Below, piece by piece: positions 13,388 through 32,622 of a stretch of 64,000 nucleotides of DNA. The number at the start of each line of letters is the position of its first letter. Position 1 is the first letter of the stretch. A program made the translations under genes and the position numbers. The stretch comes from Ciborinia camelliae (taxonomy: Eukaryota > Ascomycota > Leotiomycetes > Helotiales > Sclerotiniaceae): NCBI GenBank assembly GCA_025890175.1, contig JANPYM010000001.1, forward strand, positions 5,226,909 through 5,290,908, read 5' to 3'. The notes beneath the pieces were generated by a model. That model had not been told where the DNA came from, did not search any database, and saw only the letters and a list, made by a program, of their open reading frames with translations.

Positions 13388-14234
13388 ATGCTCCCCTCAA
13401 TTAGAGCAGTATCTTTGTTTAGTTTACCTTCATCTGTGCGGCCACTTCTCGCCGCACGGCTTTATGCAACACATACAGGCTTAGGTACCACAAACACCTC
13501 GTCGCAACCAAAAAGAAAAGCCGTTACAACCTTCAACGATGATGGCAGAGTTCCTTGGCGCGATCTATCGGGACGAGAAAAGGTTGCCAGAACAACGCAG
13601 CAGACTTTTAATCTAGGGATTGTCCTTATTGGGACAGCATTGACGGTATGCGCATCGCGATCCTTCCGTACACTGCATTTCTAACGCTTAACACAGGGAG
13701 GTGTCATCTATCTTCTTTACACAGAAGTGTTTGCTCCCGAGGGTAAAATCAATCAGTTCAATAGAGCGGCCGATCAAGTCAAGAAGGATCCACGATGCAT
13801 AGAAATATTAGGGAACGGAAAGAAGATAAGGGCATATGGCGAGCCAACATCGGGCAAGTGGGCTAGAGCTGGGCCTATTGCGTTTGTTTTCCAAATTACA
13901 GTAGCGTTTCTACAATGCTAAATTCTACGCAGGTCCAACATCACGAAAGATCATCGGGGAGTGGAACATTTGGTTATGCATTTTAATGTTAGTACCTCCC
14001 ATTTTAAAACCCTGCATTCTCTGCTTGACTAACATCAATATATAGGTTGAGGGTCCGCTGAATCACGGTGTGGTGAACTTACACATGGTCAGACGCCCGT
14101 CTGAGAGCGAATTTGTATACAAATACTTATTCTTGGACGTGAAAGGACATCAGAGGATATATCTTGAGAATGCCGATGCGACAAATGGGCCTGGGAAGAA
14201 CAAGAGTAGATTCTTGGGCATAACTTGGCGATGA
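13388..14234 (+). CDS. TIM21: Mitochondrial import inner membrane translocase subunit Tim21, 228 aa
   Basis: Tim21 is a TIM23-complex subunit that contacts Tom22 in the intermembrane space and helps couple the translocase to the respiratory chain. Four exons: 13388-13645, 13697-13881, 13933-13987 and 14046-14234. The introns are 51, 51 and 58 nt, and all phases agree. The N-terminus is Arg/Ser-rich without acidic residues (MLPSIRAVSLFSLPSSVRP), as expected for a matrix presequence. One membrane span (FNLGIVLIGTALTGGVIYLLY) precedes EVFAPEGKINQFNRA. The intermembrane-space domain shows GNGKKIRAYGEP, VEHLVMHFNVEGPLNHGVVN and the C-terminal FLDVKGHQRIYLENAD, all diagnostic for the family. The length is close to that of yeast Tim21. 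It is divergent from GLO3 and convergent with the P450 gene. Confidence 0.94.
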
Positions 14235-14307
14235 TATGGCCAGAACTGACTGGCATTCGAATGTCTGCTTTGGATGGAAACATTGAAAAGGCTGTTTATG
14301 TACCTGT

Positions 14308-14424
14308 CTTTGGGCTTTATATGGTTGTCAGATGGAGGCAGAGCTTAGATCCTCCCTCCTCTTTTATCACTGGCAAGATCTGGATTATGGATGGGTTCAT
14401 TGACCATCTCTGAAGCTCGAAAAA
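14308..14424 (+). pseudogene. Degenerate copy of part of the choline-transporter-like gene
   Basis: About 117 bp matches 21627-21750 inside exon 1 of the membrane-protein gene at 21376-24179, in the same orientation. Shared blocks include GGGCTTTATATGGT, CAGATGGAGGC, GAGCTTAG, GCAAGATCTGGA, CATTGACCATC and GAAGCTCGAAA. The copy has small indels and a stop within the matching frame. It lies 74 bp past the TIM21 stop and has no surrounding gene, so it is a relic. Confidence 0.8.
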
Positions 14425-14532
14425 GTAAATAAGAAAAAACATTGTTCAATCACAATTTGAACATTGGAAATGGTGAACTTGATCGAGGTGGTGAATGTAG
14501 CCTCTCTATCAGCGAGAAGTCGGCGAAAAGGG

Positions 14533-14766
14533 TTGTTGATATCACTACTTCATTCTTCTAAGTAGAATTGGACATCTAAGACCACTGATTGATATCATCG
14601 TTTGATTGTTCGCAAAAGAAATCAACATCCAAATCTCTTTTTGGCTCCGAAAGAATATTAAAAAATACCACTGGTTGACATCACCATTTCATTGGTCTAG
14701 CTAGAATTGAACATTGGAATCAAAGAGATACCAGAACCACCTCAATTCCAAGAACCCACGAAACAA
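14533..14766. repeat. Imperfect direct repeats downstream of the gene relic
   Basis: Two or three diverged copies of a segment follow one another. They share TTGATATCA or TTGACATCA, a TTTCATT or TTTGATT core, CTAGAATTGAACATTGGAA-like blocks and a trailing CTCTTTTTGG. The similarity is visible by eye but degenerate, and the unit length is uncertain. Confidence 0.4.
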
Positions 14767-16395
14767 TCAAATTCTCTTTTGGAATTGCAAAATCGGACCC
14801 TCCTTACCAACAATAAAAAAATCCTTCATCTTATACTCGCCGTTTCTTCCCACACCAATGCTTTCGCAGCCTGGCGCAATTCGAATATTATAGAGCCACA
14901 AAACCCTCGCGACACCGACTTGCAGCTCATACAACGCTACACTTTTCCCAATACACGCTCTAGGTCCTAAACTAAATGGGACAAAGGCTTCTCTCGCTTT
15001 TGATATTTCCTCTGGAGTACATCCTTCATTTTCGTTCGTTCCCTCTGCACCTTTGACCAACCAACGACTTGGATTGTAAACGTATGGTTGGGCAAAATGC
15101 TCCCCGCTATGATGAAGTGAATAGGTGGGAACACCGATGATGGTGCCTGGGGTGAAGTAGTGTACATTTACCCACAAGCCTCCAGGAAGAACTTCCCTAG
15201 GAAGAGGCATTGGTATCGGGGGACACAAGCGCAGGCTTTCATCGATACAAGCACGCAAGTAAACCATGGAATTGAGAGTCGGGCCATGGGAGATAGATTC
15301 GACACCTGCAAACGTGCTACGGATGATAGCAGTGAGCCGCTCCCGGATTTGAGGATGCTGGGAAAGGAAGTAGAAAATCCCAGTAAGGGCGGAATTGGCG
15401 GTGTCTGACCCAGCACCAAGAAGGAGTGTGGTTTCAGACATCAGCTCTTCTTCTGAGTACCCTTCGCCTGTATCTGGGTCGCGTGCTTGCTGGAGGTAGT
15501 AGATGATGTCTCGACGGTCACTATTTGTGACGTCGAGACGGCTACGCAATTGTCTAGCCGTAAACGAGATCTGTTTCTTGGCATTTGCGAAGAGGAATTT
15601 GGCATCATTCACCGTTTTAAGGATGGGCATTTGACCGAGGATGTTCATTCTCCGGATATTCGCAGCGATTACGTCGAGAAAGAAACGATTGTCATTACTC
15701 AACGCCGTGTTGAATGACTTCCCATAGCATATTTCCCCCAACGAATCAAAGATCATGTAGGCAGCCCAATGAGCCATGTCTTTAGGACTGGACCACTCTC
15801 CCGGTTCTTTGGAGGGGCTTGGTTGATCTCTAGCGCCCAAGCCAGCACACCAGTCTCGAATGGCAGACAGTATATGAGGCTGCATGCCACGAACAGCTTG
15901 ATCAGAGAACGCTTGCGACATCACACGTTTCTTTCGAGCATGGATATCTTTGTCGACGACGTTAAAGATACTGGTACCATAAAAAGCCGTGTACCAACTT
16001 GACTTTTGCACGTTCGCTTTATGACTGTAGATTTGATCTAAAGCTGAGGCACTGTTGATGGAAATATGGCTTGGACCAAAGCGGACGAATTCCCCGTGCT
16101 TCTGATGAAGATCGTATAGATTGGTATGCATGGTTCCATGGATGGCATGGTAGACAGCATACAAGCTGCTGAACTTTGCAAGCAATGGCCCCGGATAGAT
16201 TGCAAGTGGATGGAACTTTGTTTGGTAGATTGCATAGCCGACTATCTGAAGGGATGTGTGAGTATACTGTCAAGATTGTACGTAGAGAAAAATACTAACC
16301 ACGAGAATAACGAATCCGCTCAAAGCTGTTAGCGTGACAACCTCGGTTGAAGCAGATACCAGATTGGCATGATAATTGAACGCGTTTCGGAACAT
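14767..16395 (-). CDS. Cytochrome P450 monooxygenase, 524 aa
   Basis: This is a microsomal haem monooxygenase. Exon 1 (16395-16300) encodes the N-terminal anchor, ending VTLTALSGFVILV. A 54-nt intron (16299-16246) leads to exon 2 (16245-14767). The proline-rich hinge YPGPLLAKF follows. Residues 310-314 are AGSDT, the oxygen-binding I-helix. Residues 368-371 are ESLR, the ExxR motif. NPSRW is the PERF-type segment, and FSLGPRACIG is the haem loop with ligand Cys463. All key residues are present, so the enzyme appears functional. The style (YPGP, FVRFGPSHISIN, long I-helix) resembles fungal CYPs of the benzoate-4-hydroxylase/pisatin-demethylase/trichothecene-oxygenase clade, but the substrate cannot be assigned. 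It is the only intact member of a block that otherwise holds broken hydrolase, MFS and PKS genes, which suggests a secondary-metabolite origin. Confidence 0.92.
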
Positions 16396-17568
16396 TGCTA
16401 AAAATCGTTGTTATGCAAATAGAAGTATCCGTTCTCTGAAGGTCTAGGATATGACACTCGATAAATATTGGCAGTTTCTTGTTTGTAATTTATGGTGGGA
16501 GTGGAATCAGGTTTCCCTAGGTACTGATAAAAGATCACCGTTTTGACAAGACTCATATGGGGCGATAGCTCATAGGGCCGAGGGAAAATAGGATGACTGC
16601 AAACAAGGAGAGTTACGAGACTCGAACGAAAGGTTGCAACCAACGTGCAACCAACAAGTGTAAGCATTATATCCAAAGAAGGGTTTCCGCGGCGAAGTGC
16701 AGGGAATTCGTTATCAAAATACAGTTACCTCATTCGTTTATGCACATAGAGATCCAAAGCTTTGGTGCCGTGGATGTGCATTGATATTATGCTTTCGTGC
16801 CTAGGTAGGTATTCAAAGCAAAATTATTGATCCGAAGGCGAATGTATGATACCATTGAAGATTTCCTATAACGCAGTTTAGACTCCTAGGTACTTACACT
16901 CCAGCTACGAGATATAATATGACAAAGTACCTGCTGCATATGGTAGTTACATCTTCTTTGCAGTGTATAGTCTCTTATATACTCATCATCTTGTCAGGAT
17001 TCGGTCCCTGGGGACAGGTACTGATGATTATGTCTTGCAAGAAAGTAACCACATCACGGTGAAGTCCCACACACGCTAAAACGATGAAGTATTGGTAAAT
17101 GCTTAAGAAGTTAACATCAGCGGAAAACAAGAATCTGTGTCTGACTTTTGTCACGTCATTTTGAAATTGGCGAAAATCGCCCCCCTTTTTAAATGGGGAG
17201 ACAAGAAATCCATATATATAAATTCACAGTAATAATAGTTCATTACCAAGAATCTTCTTATTCTGCTGAATTTGACAATCGTTCAAATTGATGTAATTGG
17301 CCTTATCATACGTATTGTGTAAAATTGGCGGGAAAAATGATTGCTATTTTTCACCAATGCAGACTATTTCCTGTCACGTTTAATCATTGAAATTGTGTAC
17401 TCATTAAAACGATGTGGCTAAACCCACTTGAAATCCCATTGGACATAGTACACCTTATAAGTTGATCAAGTTCTGTCATGATTATTACTACCCATTTTTG
17501 AACAGACAAGTAGAGACCTTCGGTGGGTGAAAGATATATTAAATGATTTACGAATACCAACTAAAACT
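16396..17568. other. AT-rich spacer between P450 and relic genes
   Basis: I see no gene. The P450 promoter should lie in the left part. The region is AT-rich with short TAGGTA words near 16800 and 16890. Small frames (such as 16398-16676 minus) lack any domain or splice partner. Confidence 0.5.
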
Positions 17569-17877
17569 CTACAGCTTATTCTTTTTAGGGCTTGGTCGCT
17601 TAACTACCTCCGGCCATTTTTGGCTTGGGACCATGTGGTCTTGGATTGTCATATCTTTTCTATCTTCTCTCCACTGCTTCTCTATTTCTCCGAATCTCCT
17701 GAACTCAACTGCCAGCCATCCAGAGCATTCTTTAGCCGCTTGAGAGACTGCCTCAAAGGGAAATAGATGTCCTTGCCTACTCATGACAACTTCTTTCACC
17801 CTACCATCCGGGATGCCTCCGCAACCGCCAACGGCCGTTCCAGCAACCTTGATGCTGTGGAGGAAGGAACTACTCAA
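17569..17877 (-). pseudogene. C-terminal fragment of an alpha/beta hydrolase
   Basis: About 100 codons read TAVGGCGGIPDGRVKEVVM, then SRQGHLFPFEAVSQAAKEC and GWLAVEFRRF, with a basic tail. This matches, from memory, the C-terminal end of fungal alpha/beta hydrolases related to Lpx1 and to host-selective-metabolite biosynthesis proteins. The His in GHLFPFE would be the catalytic histidine. No nucleophile elbow or N-terminal two thirds is found upstream. Instead the sequence abuts the MFS relic within about 50 bp. It is therefore a truncated remnant. Confidence 0.6.
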
Positions 17878-17929
17878 TAAGGCATTACATAATCAGTTCC
17901 GTATTTAGATAGTATAAAATCCCTATCTA

Positions 17930-18777
17930 GGTAGCAAATGAGATGCACGCCATGCCGGAAACAAGAAGGAAAACCACAAGCATTGGAGATGACCATGAAA
18001 CTTGGGTGCCCGTCTCCAACTTGCAATATAGCTGTGATGAGAAATATGGTAGCAACCAGGAGGAGGATAACTCCCGCGGCATCCACCATTTTCCACGAAT
18101 CCTTCGAGTAGAATATTGATCAGGTAGAATATTGCAGATTTGGTAGACCATGGTGAGGAACGCCAGTTGGTAGAGATAAGAAGAGCATTATTGCCGTGAG
18201 AATTTCACCTGGAACACTAGGATAGTAATATCAGCGATCTTACAAAACACAACAAGTGACGGTCTATACTTGACGAGAAATATCCATCTCCAAGTGGTAT
18301 TTTCACTTATAGCCCCACCAAGTAATGGGCCACATAATATTGCTAGAGCGATGAATGTCATGAGAAGACTTCCTCCAGGACCGTACCATTTTGGTGGAAC
18401 GGCGTCAAAAATATGACCATCGCCATTGAATAGCAAGCTGGTGCTCCCATTCCTTGAAAACCGCGACATAGGATTCTGCATAAATTCAGCGCAACCGCGA
18501 CGATGAAATGGAGCTGCGGAAAAGCGACAAAGATGTTATTGAATTTGAAGCAGCACAGCCAGCGGAGAAAAGAGTGAACGTTGCGACGGCCCGATGATGG
18601 GGGTCTTCCTCGCAAAGATATCACGGAGCTTTGTCCATTCACAATAAGTGGTATTTGGTGTTTTGTCAGTGTCGATAGTAATGACTTTCGAGTGTTAAAT
18701 GGCATACAGAATACGTTGCGAGGTAACCAGAGACGATCCACACAACTTGAAAGAAACACCGACGCAGCCATGGGCAC
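17930..18777 (-). pseudogene. Broken MFS transporter (DHA-type drug/metabolite exporter)
   Basis: Several frames carry ordered pieces of a major facilitator. First come RILCRGFQGMGAPACYSMAM (the R-x-x-QG-x-G helix motif) and GGSLLMTFIALAILCGPLLG with ENTTWRWIFLV (motif C and the WRW.F.. segment). A 61-nt intron-like stretch with GTATAG/TTCCAG ends follows, then GEILTAIMLFLSLPTGVPHHG and WKMVDAAGVILLLVATIFL. Frames change at least twice, and the C-terminal helices and the N-terminal helices are missing. A period-16 direct duplication of GTAGAATATT (18108 and 18124) sits at one frame break. The 5' end coincides with the half-MITE at 18765-18879. Confidence 0.75.
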
Positions 18778-18879
18778 CCGGGCATTTCACCTTTCCGGGT
18801 GGTTTACCCTACCCTGCGGGATTCTACGGGGTGGTTACCCTATAAAACCCGCGGGTATATATCATGTGATCGTCTAATC
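18765..18879 (+). mobile_element. Half copy of the hAT-like MITE
   Basis: This matches the left end of the complete element at 32200. It begins CAGCCATGGGCACCC, continues through TTCCGGGTGGTTTACCCTA and GTTACCCTATAAAACCCGC, and ends TATATATCATGTGATCGTC. About 30 bp present in the full copy are missing in small deletions, and the whole right half is absent. It lies at the 5' edge of the MFS relic. Confidence 0.8.
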
Positions 18880-19674
18880 GAGTATACATGCTGCATGCAA
18901 GAGATTGAATAATCGTTGATCCAATTCGAATGATTTGTATAGTAAGCTGGAACCTTTCATATGCGCAAACCAAAAGATGTCGAGGCGTGTTGATTGTATC
19001 GGGATTCAAAGCAAGAATGACGCAAGTCTATTAATATGAATATTTTGAACAATATTTAAGTAATTGAGTGCCAGATTACGATGTTGTTATCACAGCCATT
19101 ATCGTGCACACGTAGCAATCTTGATGTCACGCTCAAAAGCGAAGCTTTACATAATCCAAGCATCTCCGTTCCAACCAAACTGACGTCCACTATTATATCA
19201 ACAAAAATCATGTGGCCCCTTATGATCGCAATCAGGATAAGATGACGTCGAGAAAATTTTCACAAGAGCTAGGAGGGAGACAATTTCAAATCGAAAAAAT
19301 GCGGACTCTAAAAATCACATAATAAATACGCATTATGAAAGCAATAGCGAGCCTGGAAGAGGAATATTAGTTTTTGATCAGTGGTAATATGGACTGCTGA
19401 GTTACCGATATGAACGATATAAACGAGCTAGCGATTCACAACTTAAGCGAAAAACAATTTCGTCAATTCCAAAGGACTAGTCCATGCTTCCCGTCCCCTG
19501 CATATTCATAGCATCGCCTTCACCAAAAAGGCATCGAGGTTATTACTAATTAGCGGACGGCAAAAAGGGATGGGAAAGCGGTCTTAGAAATAAGGGCAGA
19601 CACGGCCGTACCGGTAAGAATCTTAGCTCACTTGGCGATCAGTGTACATTAACAGGTTCCCAGACGATTTTTTT
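18880..19674. other. Gene-free spacer
   Basis: Nothing coding is recognisable between the half-MITE and the PKS relic. The stretch is AT-rich. The minus strand shows no continuation of the MFS relic past the half-MITE. Confidence 0.5.
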
Positions 19675-20390
19675 TTTAGAAGCCGAGCTACAGTTCTGAA
19701 TCCTGATCCCGATAAAACGTACGGAATAGCGGGTGACTTGGGAGATATTGGCCGAAGCATCGCAACGAGGTTTGCAAGCCGAGGGGCACGTTGGTTGTGG
19801 CTTCTGTGTCGATCAGGAGGAGCGCGGTCTCATACCGCTTTAAAAGTCGCGAAGAAATAGGAATCTCGGGGAGTTTTGGTCGCGACTCCGAGTTGCGATA
19901 TCAGGAACGAGGAGGAGGAGGAGGAGGAGGTAAGGGAGACTTTAGGAAAACAAATGCCGTCTATCAAAGGTTGCATTCAAGCGTCCATGGTGTGACAAGT
20001 ATGTGTATGTGTATAGGTAATGTGTGGTGCCAGTTCCGTCTTCTAACACACGTCAAGGATGAAAGATTCGAGGAAACGTTTGATTCTCGACGGAAAGCAG
20101 CACTGCACCCCAAGGTAGACGGTTCATCGAACTTACACATGCTATTGCCAAAGGATTTAGGTTGTTTGGTGTTGTTATCATCAGGCTCTGGTATCTGCGG
20201 CCAGGCAGGCCAGGCACACTATGCTGCTGCGAATACGTATCTAGATGCTCTCGCCCATCACCGTGTGGGTTGAGGACAGAAAGCAATCTCAATAGATCTA
20301 TCTAGGGGCCATGGTATGCGATAGGTTTCTGGGTGATAATCCGAAAATCATGGAGCGCCTACCATCACACAAAAGACCCGTTGTGGGAGG
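19675..20390 (+). pseudogene. Polyketide synthase ketoreductase-domain relic
   Basis: The frames spell the NADPH-binding ketoreductase domain of a fungal reducing PKS in order. [19 protein letters not shown] is the nucleotide-binding start. Then follow [38 protein letters not shown] and WNLH-like [32 protein letters not shown] retains the Ser and Tyr of the active site, and [12 protein letters not shown] follows. Past the frame the text AISIDL and NPKIMERL continues towards the carrier region. Stop codons, a GGA slippage tract (about 19905-19928) and a frame change interrupt it. No ketosynthase, acyltransferase or enoyl reductase sequence is found nearby, so only about 0.7 kb of a gene normally over 7 kb survives. 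Confidence 0.82.
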
Positions 20391-21375
20391 AGGGTATAAG
20401 ACAAGACAAGGTCTGTTTGCTGGACATGAGATTTGAGAAGTAGATGTGGCTACTTATGGCTGAGGTGATGTGGCGTACTGTAGTTAAAAGCCGTCATCAC
20501 GTTTATTTGTTTCTATTTCTAACCTCACATCAACTCTTCAGGTTGGAATCGCTCCAATCAACACCAACATCAACATCTATATCAATATGAACCTCAACAA
20601 CAGGGAAAATAACAATAACGTATCTCCTAGTAAGAGTACTCAAAATCTAGATCGAAATGACATTTCAACACACCAAAGTTCAAAGTTCAAATGCCACTGC
20701 AGTCAAGGCACGTGCTACCTGTTACCTGTTACCTCGTAGTTATCTCATTATTTTAAATGGCTCAAAGTTCTTCTTCTGTTGATAGTCATCATCACCATTG
20801 TCCATCAACTAGGTAGTAATTGTTGAGATGGTGAAGTGAGAAATGAGAAATGACGAAATACCTAGCGAAATTGAAAGTCATTGAGGTTACTTTTCTTATC
20901 TAGGTACTCACTCATCTTTATCATCTTCAATCTTCTCTTTCCTGTTTCCTCTGTTATCATTGAAGTAAGTCATTCATCACCTGGGTACCAGTGAAATGAC
21001 ATATGAAATCGGCTTTTGATATCAAAATACACCGTGGCTGCTTCTCCTCCTCCTGCTCCTATCTCAATTGTACAATGAGAGAGAGAAGAAAGAGACGAGA
21101 GGAGAAATTTTCATCATCTTCCATCGGACCGATCGGCGATCGAGCTCAGATTTTCACGTTGTTTTCAACGTTCGCCCCTTCCCTTTCTGCCTTCAGTTTC
21201 AAAACAGGAAAGAACCCGCGCAAATTTCGTGGGTCGGTTCGTGTATATGAGGTGAGTTTCTCCCCCACCCTTTTTCAAAATTTCGACCATCACGCCTTTA
21301 CCGCCGCCACAGCAGCAGCAGCAACAACAACGACAGCAGCAGCAGCAGCAGCAGCAACTTCTCCTGCCCGACGCC
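20391..21375. other. Intergenic region and likely promoter of the choline-transporter-like gene
   Basis: I see no gene. The last 100 bp before 21376 holds a CAG/CAA microsatellite (about 21305-21355) just upstream of the ATG, typical of a fungal 5' leader. TACCTGTTACCTG repeats lie at 20716-20735. Confidence 0.5.
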
Positions 21376-24179
21376 ATGGCCCCGCGTCGTCGGGTCACGC
21401 CTTCGGGCACAACCTCTGCGGGTGGTTCCCGCGCGCCTTCGGGCAATTCTTCTTTCTTGCCTTCGGGCACTGTCTCTGGTTCGGCGCCTTCGGGCAACAA
21501 TTCTTCTTCCGCTGCTTCGGCAGCTTATGTTTCCGGGTCGTCCACCATTACAACGGACAAAGTCCCAGAGGGTGGTGTCCTCTGGGCACTCATTATTTTG
21601 TTGTGCGGCCTGGCCGTTTCTTTTGCCTTCGGGCTTTATATGGTGATCCGCGCGGGTCAGATGGAGGCGGAGCTTAGCTCCTACCTCTTTCAACACTTGC
21701 AAGATCTGGACTGTGGCGTGGGACCATTGACCATCGGTGAAGCTCGAAAGGTTTCGGGTTTACTTCGGGAGAAGATCCCTTTCGTGTATGTGATTTTCTA
21801 TTTCTCCTTCTGACTTCTCGCCCCAGCTTTCACTCTTCCCTCTTTTCTTTTGTCATCTCAACCTCATTGTTACATGACCAAATTTCTTAAATTGCTTGTT
21901 TTTGTGTACTTCCATCCTCTTGTTGCCATTTGGTCTCGCTGTCGTTTCCACTTTCTCACTTCTGAATCCGAAACATCCATGGCATGTCAAACATTCAAAG
22001 CACCTGGTATACGCACAGTACTGGGAGTCTTTGAATTATTTCAAACATTCGACCCTATCACCATCATTTTCTTGTTGCTGTCGTTTGTTCTCGCCGTTGC
22101 TACTTCCTGTGTTCCCCTTCAAAGGAGCCGAGGCATTCCAAGTGATTGATATGCTTCAAGTACTGGGTCCATTACATCCATCTCAATCATGCATGACATC
22201 TCAATCATTCAAAGTATCTTGAATACTCGGAGCATGATACACAATCAAGTCATGTCAGATTATCAAGTTATGTTAGATTATCAAGTCATATCAAACTATC
22301 AAGTTATGTCAGACTATTAAGTTACGAGCTTTGAGTACGGCCCTTCACGACCTCCCTCGCAGCTCGTTCTGCGCAGCTTGTAGAGCCCTATACTTAAACA
22401 ACCCAATCAGCATCCGTTTCGCATAATTAATGAGGTGTTCTAAAATATGTATGTTAGAGATGTTAAACTATCAAGTTATGTCAGATTATCAAATCATATA
22501 AAACATCCAAAACATTTTAGACTATTATAGCGTATTAGAATATATAAGGCTTTCAGATATTCAAGGCTTGTCAGACTATCAAAGAATTTTATATATCCAA
22601 AGCTTGCCAAATATCCAAAGCATTCCATACATTCAAGGCTTGTCAAACATCCAAAGTATTTCATACATCCAAAGTATTTCATACATCCAAAGCATTTCAT
22701 ACATTCAAAGTTCTTGATATACTCAAAGTATTACAGACATTCACATAAACTTGAACATTCAGCTCTATCATCGCTACTTCCTGTATCAGTTCCTGCCTTC
22801 TGAGAGACATGCTAGACCTAAATGGGATGAGTTTGTCTTGTTTGCTCAAACAGACCTAGCACGGACCACAATCCATTTTACTATTTAAACCCCCCTACAC
22901 ACCCCCCTCTCTTCTACTTTTCCATCATCGATGCTGACCTGCTTCGACCAGGGCGCCATCTTTTGGCACTTCGGTGCTCCTCGCGTACTTTTTCCTTGGC
23001 CTCGCGTTCCTTCTTCGCCGAGCAAACTTCACCCAATGGATCTCGGGTGGTGCTGCTGTTCTCGGAATCGTTGGTGCGCTGCTCCTGAACTGGTACGTTC
23101 AGTTCACCGCTTCTGTGGTCAGCATTGTATTCGCGGCGCTCTGTTTAATATGGCTCATTCTCTGGCACAATTCTCGACATTTATCCAAGGCCATATGTTC
23201 TACGGTATGCAAACTGGTCCTTAACCAACCGGTAGTCTTAGCCCTCAGCGTCTCGGCCAGCGCAATTACAATCCTCATCTATGGCGGATATCTTGTCGTC
23301 CTTTACAGCCTGAGGCAACAATGGGATACGAGAAGTCCTTCGTGTACAAAGGATCGAAGTACCAACCCTCCGAAACTTTTGACGGAGACTATCCTACTGT
23401 CCTTGATTACCTACTGGACTACCCAAACGATTTCTACTCTAGCACAGACGCTAGCTTCCACAGTCACTCAACAGCACATTTCGAATGTTCAATCTGGCCT
23501 GAGACAATCAAAAAGTCGCAAATCTTCAATCAGTAGATCCCTCAGAATTAACTGTGGGAGCGTATGTTTGGGAGCTGGCCTGCTCTCCCTCGACTTGTTC
23601 TTGAAGGACCTTACTATGGGTTTGATGCAGAATATATCACTCGCTCCAGCAGATCCTTTCCATGCCAAAACAGCCGCTCTTCTCCTTTCTTTAATGTTCT
23701 ACATGGCGCCCTTATATGCAGCTCTGGGCGAGAAAATCAACGATTGGGCCTTTGTACTCGTAGGCCTAGACAATACTTCATACTGGCATGCGAATCGAAT
23801 CGGAGTAACCCTCATGTCAAGCAGTGGACTGGACCTACTTGCAAAAAGCACTGGATTATACCAACTTATTGAGCACATTCCTGTCGTAATTGGCGGGATT
23901 GCGGCTATGTCGACATACCTCATCATCACATTTGTGCCTGGACCTATTATTCAAACGAGTGATGTCATGATGGCCGATGTCCTTGTTGCTTTTGCATTCT
24001 TTGGTGGCACGCAGATTTCAAGAGCAGTCTTGGCTCCATTCAAGGGAGCAATGTGTACCATCTGGGTGTTGATGGCTAGAGAGCCAACATTATTCAAGGA
24101 TCATCATGGAGAGATTTGGAAGGGTTTGGTGGAGTTGAACCCTATTCTTGCCGAGGAGTTGTTGAACAAAGAGAATTGA
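21376..24179 (+). CDS. Choline-transporter-like (SLC44/Pns1-type) membrane protein, 545 aa
   Basis: Exon 1 (21376-21785) and exon 2 (22952-24179) join in frame across a 1166-nt intron with donor GTATGT, branch GCTGAC (22933-22938) and acceptor ACCAG. The protein has a Ser/Gly-rich N-terminus and a first membrane span (LWALIILLCGLAVSFAFGLYM). A loop with a short Cys-containing segment follows, then about eight to nine hydrophobic helices. The block YWTTQTISTLAQTLAST, and late NDWAFVLVGLDNTSYWHA followed by IPVVIGGIAAMSTYLIITF, resembles the C-terminal half of SLC44/Pns1 proteins. Length agrees with yeast Pns1 as I remember it. If correct it sits in the plasma membrane; substrate is unproven. 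Alternatively the two exons are separate genes, but the strong acceptor and continuous frame argue against that. Confidence 0.65.
22190..22745. repeat. Degenerate 18-bp minisatellite inside the intron
   Basis: Two neighbouring tracts share an approximately 18-bp unit. The first has ATCAAGTTATGTCAGATT-like copies (about 22240-22325, and again near 22465-22490). The second has CATCCAAAGTATTTCATA-like copies (about 22505-22745). About 140 bp of unrelated GC-richer DNA interrupts them at 22325-22465. The whole lies in the first intron of the choline-transporter-like gene and explains its unusual length. Confidence 0.75.
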
Positions 24180-25297
24180 AAGGAAGGAGATTTATTGTCA
24201 GAAATGGGTGGGAACAATTGCTGGAACTTTGTTGTTTGAGATAAGTTGGCATAAGCACTGGAGGTACATTATATGAGATGGGTGGGAACAATTGCCTTTA
24301 TGAGAATTACTAAGTGAAGAGGTCATTATCGGAGATGAATGGGAACAGTCACTTAACCAGAGTTATCAGTAATGGTTGGGATCACTAGATGATTGCTTCA
24401 CTTGATATTCTAATGAGAATACATCTTTCTGCTCTCGATACCTTTCTTTCTCTTTTTGTGACTATAATTGACTTGACGCTATGCTATGCTATGCTATGCT
24501 ATGCTACAATATCCATCCAAGCAGTTTGTAGAAAATCATGACGACTTGAAGAGGCAATTTCTCCTCGGTAACTTGAAGTAGGTGGGAATTATGATGTTAA
24601 TGTTAATTTTAATCTTCTTACAAGGGAATTGGTTTGGTTCTTGGTTTTGGTTCTTGAGAGATGAGCAATGGGTAATGGGCAATGGGTAATAGGCAATAGA
24701 TAGCTATTACCATAGAAATGATAAATCACAATCGATTAGGATTAGGATTAGATCCATCAGATAGATGATTGTTGGGATAGGTATAGGTATAGGTATCTAG
24801 GTATGGGTATCTAGGTATCTAGGTATCTAGGTATCTAGGTATCTAGGTATCTAGGTATCTAGGTATCTAGGTATCTAGGTATCTAGGTATCTAGGTATCT
24901 AGGTATCTAGGTATCTAGGTATGATGGGAAAGAAATGAAAAGATGATGGATGGTAGATGGGTAGATGGGTAGATAGGTATGATATGGATGGATGTAGTAA
25001 GGAAGGTTATTAAATATTTTTTTGGGATGTTATTGTAGATTGGTGTTTGTAGTTGATGGTTGGTGGTTGAGGGTTGAGATTAGTTGAGGATTGGTGGGTG
25101 ATGGTTGAGGGTTGAGGGTTATTATCTGTATTAGGAAATAGATGGTTTTTTTATATCCCTTCTACAAATCTATGCGTTGTTTTTATATTCTCCTTAGTTG
25201 TATATATGCAGCGTAAAAAGCTTTTCTCATTTTGACTTTAATACCCGTAGATCCCAGAAAGTATGATGCTCGAGTCGCGTTTTTGTCTATGAATCTT
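24180..25297. other. Intergenic region with short tandem repeats
   Basis: There is no gene. The first 180 bp, probably 3' UTR, holds three related copies of GATGGGTGGGAACAATTGC (near 24203, 24277 and 24333). A GCTAT pentamer array lies at 24479-24506. Runs of TGGGTAATGGGCAATGGG type follow near 24668. Confidence 0.55.
24780..24920. repeat. 8-bp tandem array (ATCTAGGT)
   Basis: About fifteen copies of ATCTAGGT are preceded by a few GTATAGGT units. The unit contains the TAGGTA word common in the intergenic DNA of this window. Confidence 0.9.
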
Positions 25298-32191: not shown

Positions 32192-32622
32192 ATTACAGGC
32201 AGGCATGGGCACCCGTACCCTACCCGGGGTATTTCACCTCTTCGGGTGGTTTACCCTACCCTACTGGATTCTACAGGGTGATTACCCTATAAAACCCGCG
32301 GGTACAGGTAGACCCGCGGGTATATATCATGTGATCGTCTAATGTAATCGTCCAAAATTGAAACTATTCCCAACTCTATCCCCACCTTTCACTTTTCATC
32401 TTTCATTTTCCACCTTTTATCTTTCATCTTCTACCCCCCCCTTCAACTTTGAACGATTACATTAAACGATCACATGATATACCCGCGGGTCTACCCGTAC
32501 CCTAGGGCATTTCACAAGATAGTTACCCTACCCCGTAGGGGGGGAGCAGGGTAGCTACCCGCCGGGTTTTACCCCGGGTTACCCCGGGTTTACCCTACCC
32601 TGTGCCCAACCCTGATTACAGG
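32192..32622. mobile_element. Complete 415-bp hAT-like MITE with 8-bp target duplication
   Basis: The element occupies 32200-32614. ATTACAGG occurs immediately on both sides (32192-32199 and 32615-32622), an 8-bp target duplication. The left end reads CAGGCATGGGCACCC. The reverse complement of the right end reads CAGGGTTGGGCACAGGG. CAG-starting termini with 8-bp duplications are diagnostic of the hAT superfamily. The inverted repeats extend inward imperfectly: CCCGCGGGTATATATCATGT near 32310 pairs with the complementary ACATGATATACCCGCGGG near 32475, giving a fold-back structure. It has no coding capacity, so it is non-autonomous. A half copy lies at 18765. Confidence 0.92.

What the first reader, a model, noticed from the sequence alone, without database searches (positions are those of the whole stretch)
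14308..21750. Duplicate gene fragments bracket the relic metabolite cluster
A degenerate copy of exon 1 sequence of the choline-transporter-like gene (21627-21750) sits at 14308-14424, directly after TIM21 and in the same orientation. Between the two copies lie the P450, hydrolase fragment, MFS relic and PKS relic. This is what would remain if the cluster DNA entered between TIM21 and the transporter gene by an event that duplicated part of the transporter, or if a larger segmental duplication later decayed.
Basis: partly seen in the sequence, partly recalled or inferred. Interest (0 to 1): 0.75.

Follow-up and report, generated by a model that had tools for sequence, protein, structure and literature searches.

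The report
Stray transporter exon fragment beside TIM21
In the camellia petal-blight fungus a short, broken copy of part of a transporter gene lies 7 kb from the gene itself, next to the leftovers of a metabolite gene cluster; it is a genuine but most likely functionless scar of an old DNA rearrangement rather than a sign that the cluster was neatly inserted there.

Summary
Window 14305-14422 matches 21624-21749 inside exon 1 of the PNS1/choline-transporter-like gene (E 1e-24; score 107 against at most 30 in 1000 shuffles); the genome search reports no third place. The species is Ciborinia camelliae. The copy looks dead: its frame is broken and 18 substitutions fall 6/6/6 on codon positions. 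At 37 readable residues it shares three with the gene that none of 9 relatives has, yet keeps a tryptophan that 6 of 9 have and the gene lacks: probably copied on the Ciborinia lineage. A second, separate PNS1 fragment (exon 2, 81%) lies on another contig, whereas four control stretches gave none that similar. The cluster relic is real: the P450 has close Botrytis relatives, and one B. tulipae model joins it to a PKS end that matches the PKS remnant. The 'bracket' reading fits poorly: the right-hand copy lies in a whole native gene, and locus tags put TIM21 and PNS1 about 40 genes apart in Monilinia vaccinii-corymbosi. Best reading: a short PNS1 stretch captured at, or surviving from, a rearrangement after TIM21. 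Known kind, modest interest.

The parts
13388..14234 (+). TIM21 gene, intact, 228 aa in 4 exons
   Evidence: spliced frame open; 100% match to C. camelliae TIM21 P0020; TIM21 Pfam hit on the last exon
14290..14422 (+). degenerate copy of part of PNS1 exon 1 (core 14305-14422)
14767..16395 (-). cytochrome P450, intact frame (C. camelliae NHQ30_001356)
   Evidence: Pfam p450 1.3e-55; P0140 and relatives; start of exon 1 from the alignment
17572..17892 (-). open frame with a weakly alpha/beta-hydrolase-like C-terminal piece (relic)
   Evidence: 3 weak matches elsewhere in the genome; 28% over 72 aa to a frame in L032 that has Abhydrolase_6 5.6e-6, while the frame in L033 has no Pfam match and L034 was not examined; no Pfam match of its own
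18191..18786 (-). MFS transporter relic in pieces
   Evidence: MFS_1 1.8e-6, below the curated cut-off, for 18191-18535; no family for 18361-18786; NCBIfam MFS hits, best 4.6e-8, all below cut-off
18777..18878 (.). piece of a dispersed inverted-repeat element inside the relic region
   Evidence: most of the 54 matches listed (itself and the PNS1 fragment among the 54); a copy with 52-base inverted ends in L012
19747..20300 (+). PKS ketoreductase-domain relic with stops and frame changes
   Evidence: KR Pfam 4.5e-20 for 19737-20270; tblastn of B. tulipae P0143, E 1e-26 and 5e-10; blastp 52 of 111 identical
21376..21786 (+). PNS1/choline-transporter-like gene, exon 1; source block 21612-21749
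   Evidence: P0001 100%; N-terminus aligned with Monilinia P0002
22953..24179 (+). PNS1 exon 2, intact; 23997-24119 is the source of the second fragment on contig 23
   Evidence: Choline_transpo Pfam 3.9e-22; P0001 residues 218-625

Best explanation
The 14290-14422 stretch is a non-functional fragment of PNS1 exon 1, made on the Ciborinia lineage. Shown: real homology, no third copy reported, same orientation, broken frame, even spread of substitutions over codon positions, sharp right edge. Inferred: while the interval between TIM21 and PNS1 was being rearranged (the two are about 40 gene tags apart in Monilinia vaccinii-corymbosi, and the P450/PKS model is on another scaffold than TIM21 in Botrytis tulipae), a double-strand break just after TIM21 was sealed with about 120-135 bases copied or captured from PNS1 exon 1. 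The patch then decayed neutrally, as did the PKS, MFS and hydrolase-like genes. The fragment marks a breakpoint; it has no function of its own and did not carry the cluster in.
For: Homology and uniqueness. Homology stops abruptly on the right (anchored extension 0) and within 12-15 bases on the left (17 of 200 shuffles as good) although the block is still 86% identical. The 18 substitutions fall 6/6/6 on the three codon positions (the script took 21377 as the A of ATG, it is 21376, which only relabels three equal classes). Frame is lost by gaps of 10 and 1 bases. Residues M169, D190 and L198 (P0001 numbering) are shared by gene and fragment and by 0 of 9 relatives; at 188 the fragment has W like 6 of 9 relatives, the gene L. 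Fragment to gene 30 of 37, fragment to Monilinia 24 of 37, gene to Monilinia 24 of 37. Locus tags: M. vaccinii-corymbosi TIM21 DSL72_002705, PNS1 DSL72_002745, both with longest contig 4062641; B. tulipae TIM21 BTUL_0223g00090, P450+PKS BTUL_0053g00020. A second short PNS1 piece, from exon 2, on another contig shows that short pieces of this gene do turn up away from it. Precedent in a filamentous fungus: some Cas-induced breaks in Magnaporthe oryzae were repaired with insertions from neighbouring sequence, other chromosomes or mitochondrial DNA (PMC9684475, passages read).
Against: No relative's DNA could be read, so the empty site and the date of the rearrangement are not seen. Synteny rests on locus-tag numbers and contig lengths of cluster representatives. 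[quoted passage not shown] The second fragment on contig 23 could equally mean that older PNS1 paralogues were lost piecemeal, which favours the rival. The residue dating rests on 37 positions, and at position 188 one of the 9 relatives (P0005) has L like the gene.
Confidence: 0.45

Rival explanations
1. Remnant of a larger tandem or segmental duplication of PNS1 (or its 5' half): a second gene copy lay after TIM21 and was mostly removed by deletions, leaving 120-135 bases.
For: Same orientation, 7.3 kb apart. The region between holds broken genes and repeats, so loss of DNA there is plausible. Another PNS1 piece, from exon 2 (124 columns, 81%, E 7e-24, one in-frame stop), stands alone on contig 23, as birth and loss of PNS1 copies would leave; its substitutions are 9/8/14 over codon positions 1/2/3, a weak hint of earlier constraint.
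Against: The edge at 14422 is sharp at about 86% identity. No other PNS1 piece lies between 14.4 and 21 kb: tblastn of P0001 at E up to 10 and DNA self-comparison at E up to 1e-5.
Confidence: 0.37
2. The cluster entered between neighbouring TIM21 and PNS1 by an event that duplicated part of PNS1.
For: The P450/PKS remnants do lie between the two copies, and in B. tulipae the P450+PKS model and TIM21 are on different scaffolds.
Against: PNS1 is whole, with native sequence on both sides of the shared block; TIM21 and PNS1 are not neighbours in M. vaccinii-corymbosi by locus tag; the P450 has relatives of 69-80% in Rutstroemia and Botrytis, so it looks old in these families rather than a newcomer, though not necessarily at this place.
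Confidence: 0.1
3. The fragment acts: transcribed in the TIM21 3' UTR, or as antisense from P450 read-through, it regulates PNS1.
For: It lies 55-70 bases after the TIM21 stop and 344 bases beyond the stop of the convergent P450.
Against: The longest uninterrupted match in the alignment is 14 bases, too short for perfect small-RNA pairing of 20 or more (general knowledge); substitutions show no constraint by codon position. No expression data were available.
Confidence: 0.03

Closest known systems
Partial gene duplicates / gene-fragment pseudogenes
   Same: internal exon piece without start, frame broken, decaying, near the parent gene
   Different: nothing essential; its place at a probable synteny breakpoint, and a second fragment of the same gene elsewhere, are the notable points
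Sequence capture at repaired double-strand breaks (insertions in Magnaporthe oryzae, PMC9684475, passages read)
   Same: short stretch of genomic DNA set between other sequences, sharp edge
   Different: here old and decayed; junction micro-homologies cannot be read without an empty site
Decayed secondary-metabolite clusters in Sclerotiniaceae
   Same: PKS-P450 pair with a counterpart in Botrytis, PKS decayed; separation of cluster genes by inversion/translocation and TEs is described for pks12-smr1 of Monilinia fructigena (PMC8959702, passages read)
   Different: P450 and KR lie on opposite strands here, whereas the B. tulipae gene model joins them on one strand

Membership tests
Partial gene duplicate (pseudogene fragment) | significant homology to a functional-looking gene elsewhere in the genome | tested here: met
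Partial gene duplicate (pseudogene fragment) | covers only part of the gene and its frame is broken | tested here: met
   133 of about 411 bases of exon 1; frame lost by gaps of 10 and 1
Partial gene duplicate (pseudogene fragment) | no purifying selection | tested here: met
   substitutions 6/6/6 over codon positions, n = 18, a small number
Insertion flanked by target-site duplication | copies lie at the edges of the insert and each continues into one flank of the original site | tested here: not met
   right copy continues natively on both sides; left copy on neither to a significant extent
Break-repair filler / captured DNA | sharp edges and junction micro-homology against an empty site | tested here: inconclusive
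   sharp right edge, weak left extension; no empty site available
RIP-mutated duplication | C-to-T changes mainly at CpA (or G-to-A at TpG) | tested here: not met
   2 of 9 C-to-T/G-to-A changes in that context

The most novel reading that the evidence does not exclude
The fragment is the visible scar of the rearrangement that, on the Ciborinia lineage, brought a PKS-P450 cluster and PNS1 to TIM21 and at the same time broke the cluster, so that one datable scar would give the time of loss of a metabolite pathway; and since a second PNS1 fragment stands on another contig, this gene may be an unusually frequent donor of short captured pieces.
Probability: 0.2. Interest if true: 0.45.

Novelty: new member of a known kind. 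Interest (0 to 1): 0.25.

Why it matters
Small fragments of this sort are useful markers of old breakpoints. Here one may tie the decay of a metabolite cluster with a counterpart in Botrytis to a rearrangement on the Ciborinia branch, which relatives' DNA would test directly. By itself it changes no view of how clusters move.

Tried and rejected
RIP as the cause of divergence: rejected for the fragment, 2 of 9 changes in context. RIP indices in 1-kb windows starting at 14001-20501 were TA/AT 0.57-0.84 against 0.72 for the whole window; the PKS relic (start 19501) is the most RIP-like of these at 0.84 and 1.12 but short of the thresholds I recall. Retroposed cDNA: the A-rich stretch after 14422 is suggestive, but the copied block lies in the middle of exon 1, not at an mRNA end; set aside by reasoning, not tested. 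Inversion with staggered breaks gives inverted copies at far ends, not direct copies 7.3 kb apart; by reasoning. Relatives' DNA: viral contigs with P0001 and genome contigs with P0020 gave no relative. Papers that might give Botrytis gene numbers for TIM21 or PNS1: none useful. Base rate: four other stretches of the window, 15.9 kb in all, gave 0, 2, 0 and 0 further genome matches; the 2 are 70-73% identical, E 4e-6. This is a small control. The protein search of the genome with PNS1 also listed a second weak place on contig 5 (33 residues, 55%, E 0.002) that did not stand up in tblastn of its locus. Rfam: 0 matches.

Full report
What it is. The window is part of contig 1 (5,578,642 bases; window at 5226909-5290908) of a 46.2-Mb fungal genome. 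The TIM21 protein is 100% identical to one named from Ciborinia camelliae, and the P450 is NHQ30_001356 of the same species.

The observation. 14305-14422 and 21624-21749 align at E 1e-24, far beyond 1000 shuffles, and the genome search reports no third place. A looser alignment reaches 14290-14422 against 21612-21749 with 109 of 127 ungapped columns identical and a longest exact run of 14. The left extension is weak (17 of 200 shuffles as good) and on the right there is none.

State of the copy. It lies after an intact TIM21. Against the gene it lacks 10 and 1 bases and has two extra stretches of 3 bases. The 18 substitutions are 6/6/6 by codon position (the labels there are shifted by one, which does not alter the equal split). 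Nine of the 18 are C-to-T or G-to-A read from gene to fragment, against one T-to-C, but only 2 of these 9 lie in the context of repeat-induced point mutation. This looks like plain neutral decay.

When it was made. I placed the readable residues of the fragment on an alignment of PNS1 proteins from C. camelliae and 9 relatives: one Monilinia, three of Stromatinia/Sclerotinia, five of Botrytis/Botryotinia. One search gave 18 proteins besides the window's own. Of the 9 left out, P0006, P0009 and P0018 were seen to lack the exon-1 part and P0007, P0011, P0015, P0016, P0017 and P0019 were not inspected. At 37 positions the fragment agrees with the C. camelliae gene at 30 and with Monilinia at 24; the gene agrees with Monilinia at 24. 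Three residues are found in gene and fragment only. At position 188 the fragment has the tryptophan of 6 of 9 relatives, where the gene has leucine; two relatives have serine and one (P0005) leucine. Gene and fragment therefore most likely parted on the Ciborinia branch, before the gene lost that tryptophan. The number of sites is small.

A second fragment. The search of the genome with the PNS1 protein listed a short match on contig 23. At the DNA level 123 bases of exon 2 (23997-24119) match there at 81%, E 7e-24, the only other match of 22800-24400. It has an in-frame stop. A looser alignment gives 120 of 151 ungapped columns, with substitutions 9/8/14 over codon positions 1/2/3. The 3.1-kb locus held no other match to the window. 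So this gene has left two short pieces. Four control stretches, 15.9 kb in all, gave no second place above 73% identity. This fits repeated capture of short pieces, or the piecemeal loss of PNS1 copies; it does not decide between them.

What lies between. The P450 frame is intact. Its best relatives outside the species are Botrytis elliptica (80% over 91%), Rutstroemia (69%) and a B. tulipae model of 818 aa (72%) that joins a P450 to the KR and carrier end of a PKS. The KR remnant matches that PKS part: tblastn E 1e-26 and 5e-10, the second alignment starting inside the P450 part so that only its PKS end means anything. As a control, the longest open piece of the relic is 52 of 111 identical to P0143 (E 1e-26), against 44 of 100, 36 of 80 and 37 of 76 for three other KR places in the genome (E 5e-21 to 4e-20). 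P0143 is thus the best of the four by a modest margin, and its joined P450 is what makes a common cluster likely. Here P450 and KR lie on opposite strands, whereas the B. tulipae model has both on one strand, which points to a local rearrangement as far as an automatic gene model can be trusted. The hydrolase piece is weak: no Pfam match of its own, a chance-like NCBIfam match far below cut-off, 28% over 72 residues to an Abhydrolase_6 frame. The MFS piece is below curated cut-offs. Dispersed repeats sit at 18777-18878 and around 17855-17941.

Gene order in relatives. No fungal relative's DNA was found by the two scans I ran. I used locus tags as a stand-in. In Monilinia vaccinii-corymbosi TIM21 is DSL72_002705 and PNS1 DSL72_002745, both with longest contig 4,062,641: linked, but about 40 genes apart if tags run in order. 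In B. tulipae TIM21 is BTUL_0223g00090 (65,462 bases) and the P450+PKS model BTUL_0053g00020 (216,883 bases). In one B. cinerea assembly TIM21 (ACHAO1_011107) and PNS1 (ACHAO1_010747) have different longest contigs (14,374 and 43,861), which is weak. So the C. camelliae order TIM21 - relic cluster - PNS1 is not seen in the two relatives that can be judged, each for one pair only.

Judgement. The insertion-with-duplication model fits poorly, because the right-hand copy is the middle of an intact exon and the neighbourhood it presupposes is absent in Monilinia. The likeliest account is a short stretch of PNS1 captured at a repaired breakpoint after TIM21, with a trimmed larger duplication as a close rival. 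Captured insertions at repaired breaks are on record in Magnaporthe oryzae (PMC9684475, passages read) and rearranged clusters with TEs in Monilinia fructigena (PMC8959702, passages read). A paper on changing clusters in otherwise syntenic Botrytis genomes is known to me here only by its title in a reference list (not held).

Noticed in passing
G000 C23:1389593-1389716 (L029 1491-1614; L040): A second isolated, degenerate PNS1 fragment, from exon 2 (window 23997-24119), 81% over 124 columns, with an in-frame stop.
   Followed up: partly
window 18777-18878 and 32224-32343: Pieces of a dispersed element; the genome search with 18000-22000 listed 54 places, nearly all of this element (best other 96%), and the copy in L012 has 52-base inverted ends 98% complementary around 50 bases, like a miniature inverted-repeat element.
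   Followed up: partly
window 17846-17941: A second dispersed repeat (14 further places at 76-90%) sits in the hydrolase/MFS relic region.
   Followed up: no
window 14430-14720: Decayed near-repeats between the fragment and the P450 3' end (for example 14440-14469 and 14690-14719 at 77%); the genome search with 14235-18000 listed no other place for them.
   Followed up: no
window 21075-21375: The public PNS1 model P0001 starts at 21075 and adds an N-terminus that none of the 9 aligned relatives has; alignment with Monilinia suggests ATG 21376.
   Followed up: partly
P0143 (Botrytis tulipae BTUL_0053g00020): A P450 fused to a PKS KR-carrier end in one gene model, probably a mis-joined or itself decayed cluster.
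   Followed up: no
G000 C22:1866933-1868542: Two neighbouring P450 matches of 42-44% carrying stops in the raw frame (introns not excluded).
   Followed up: no
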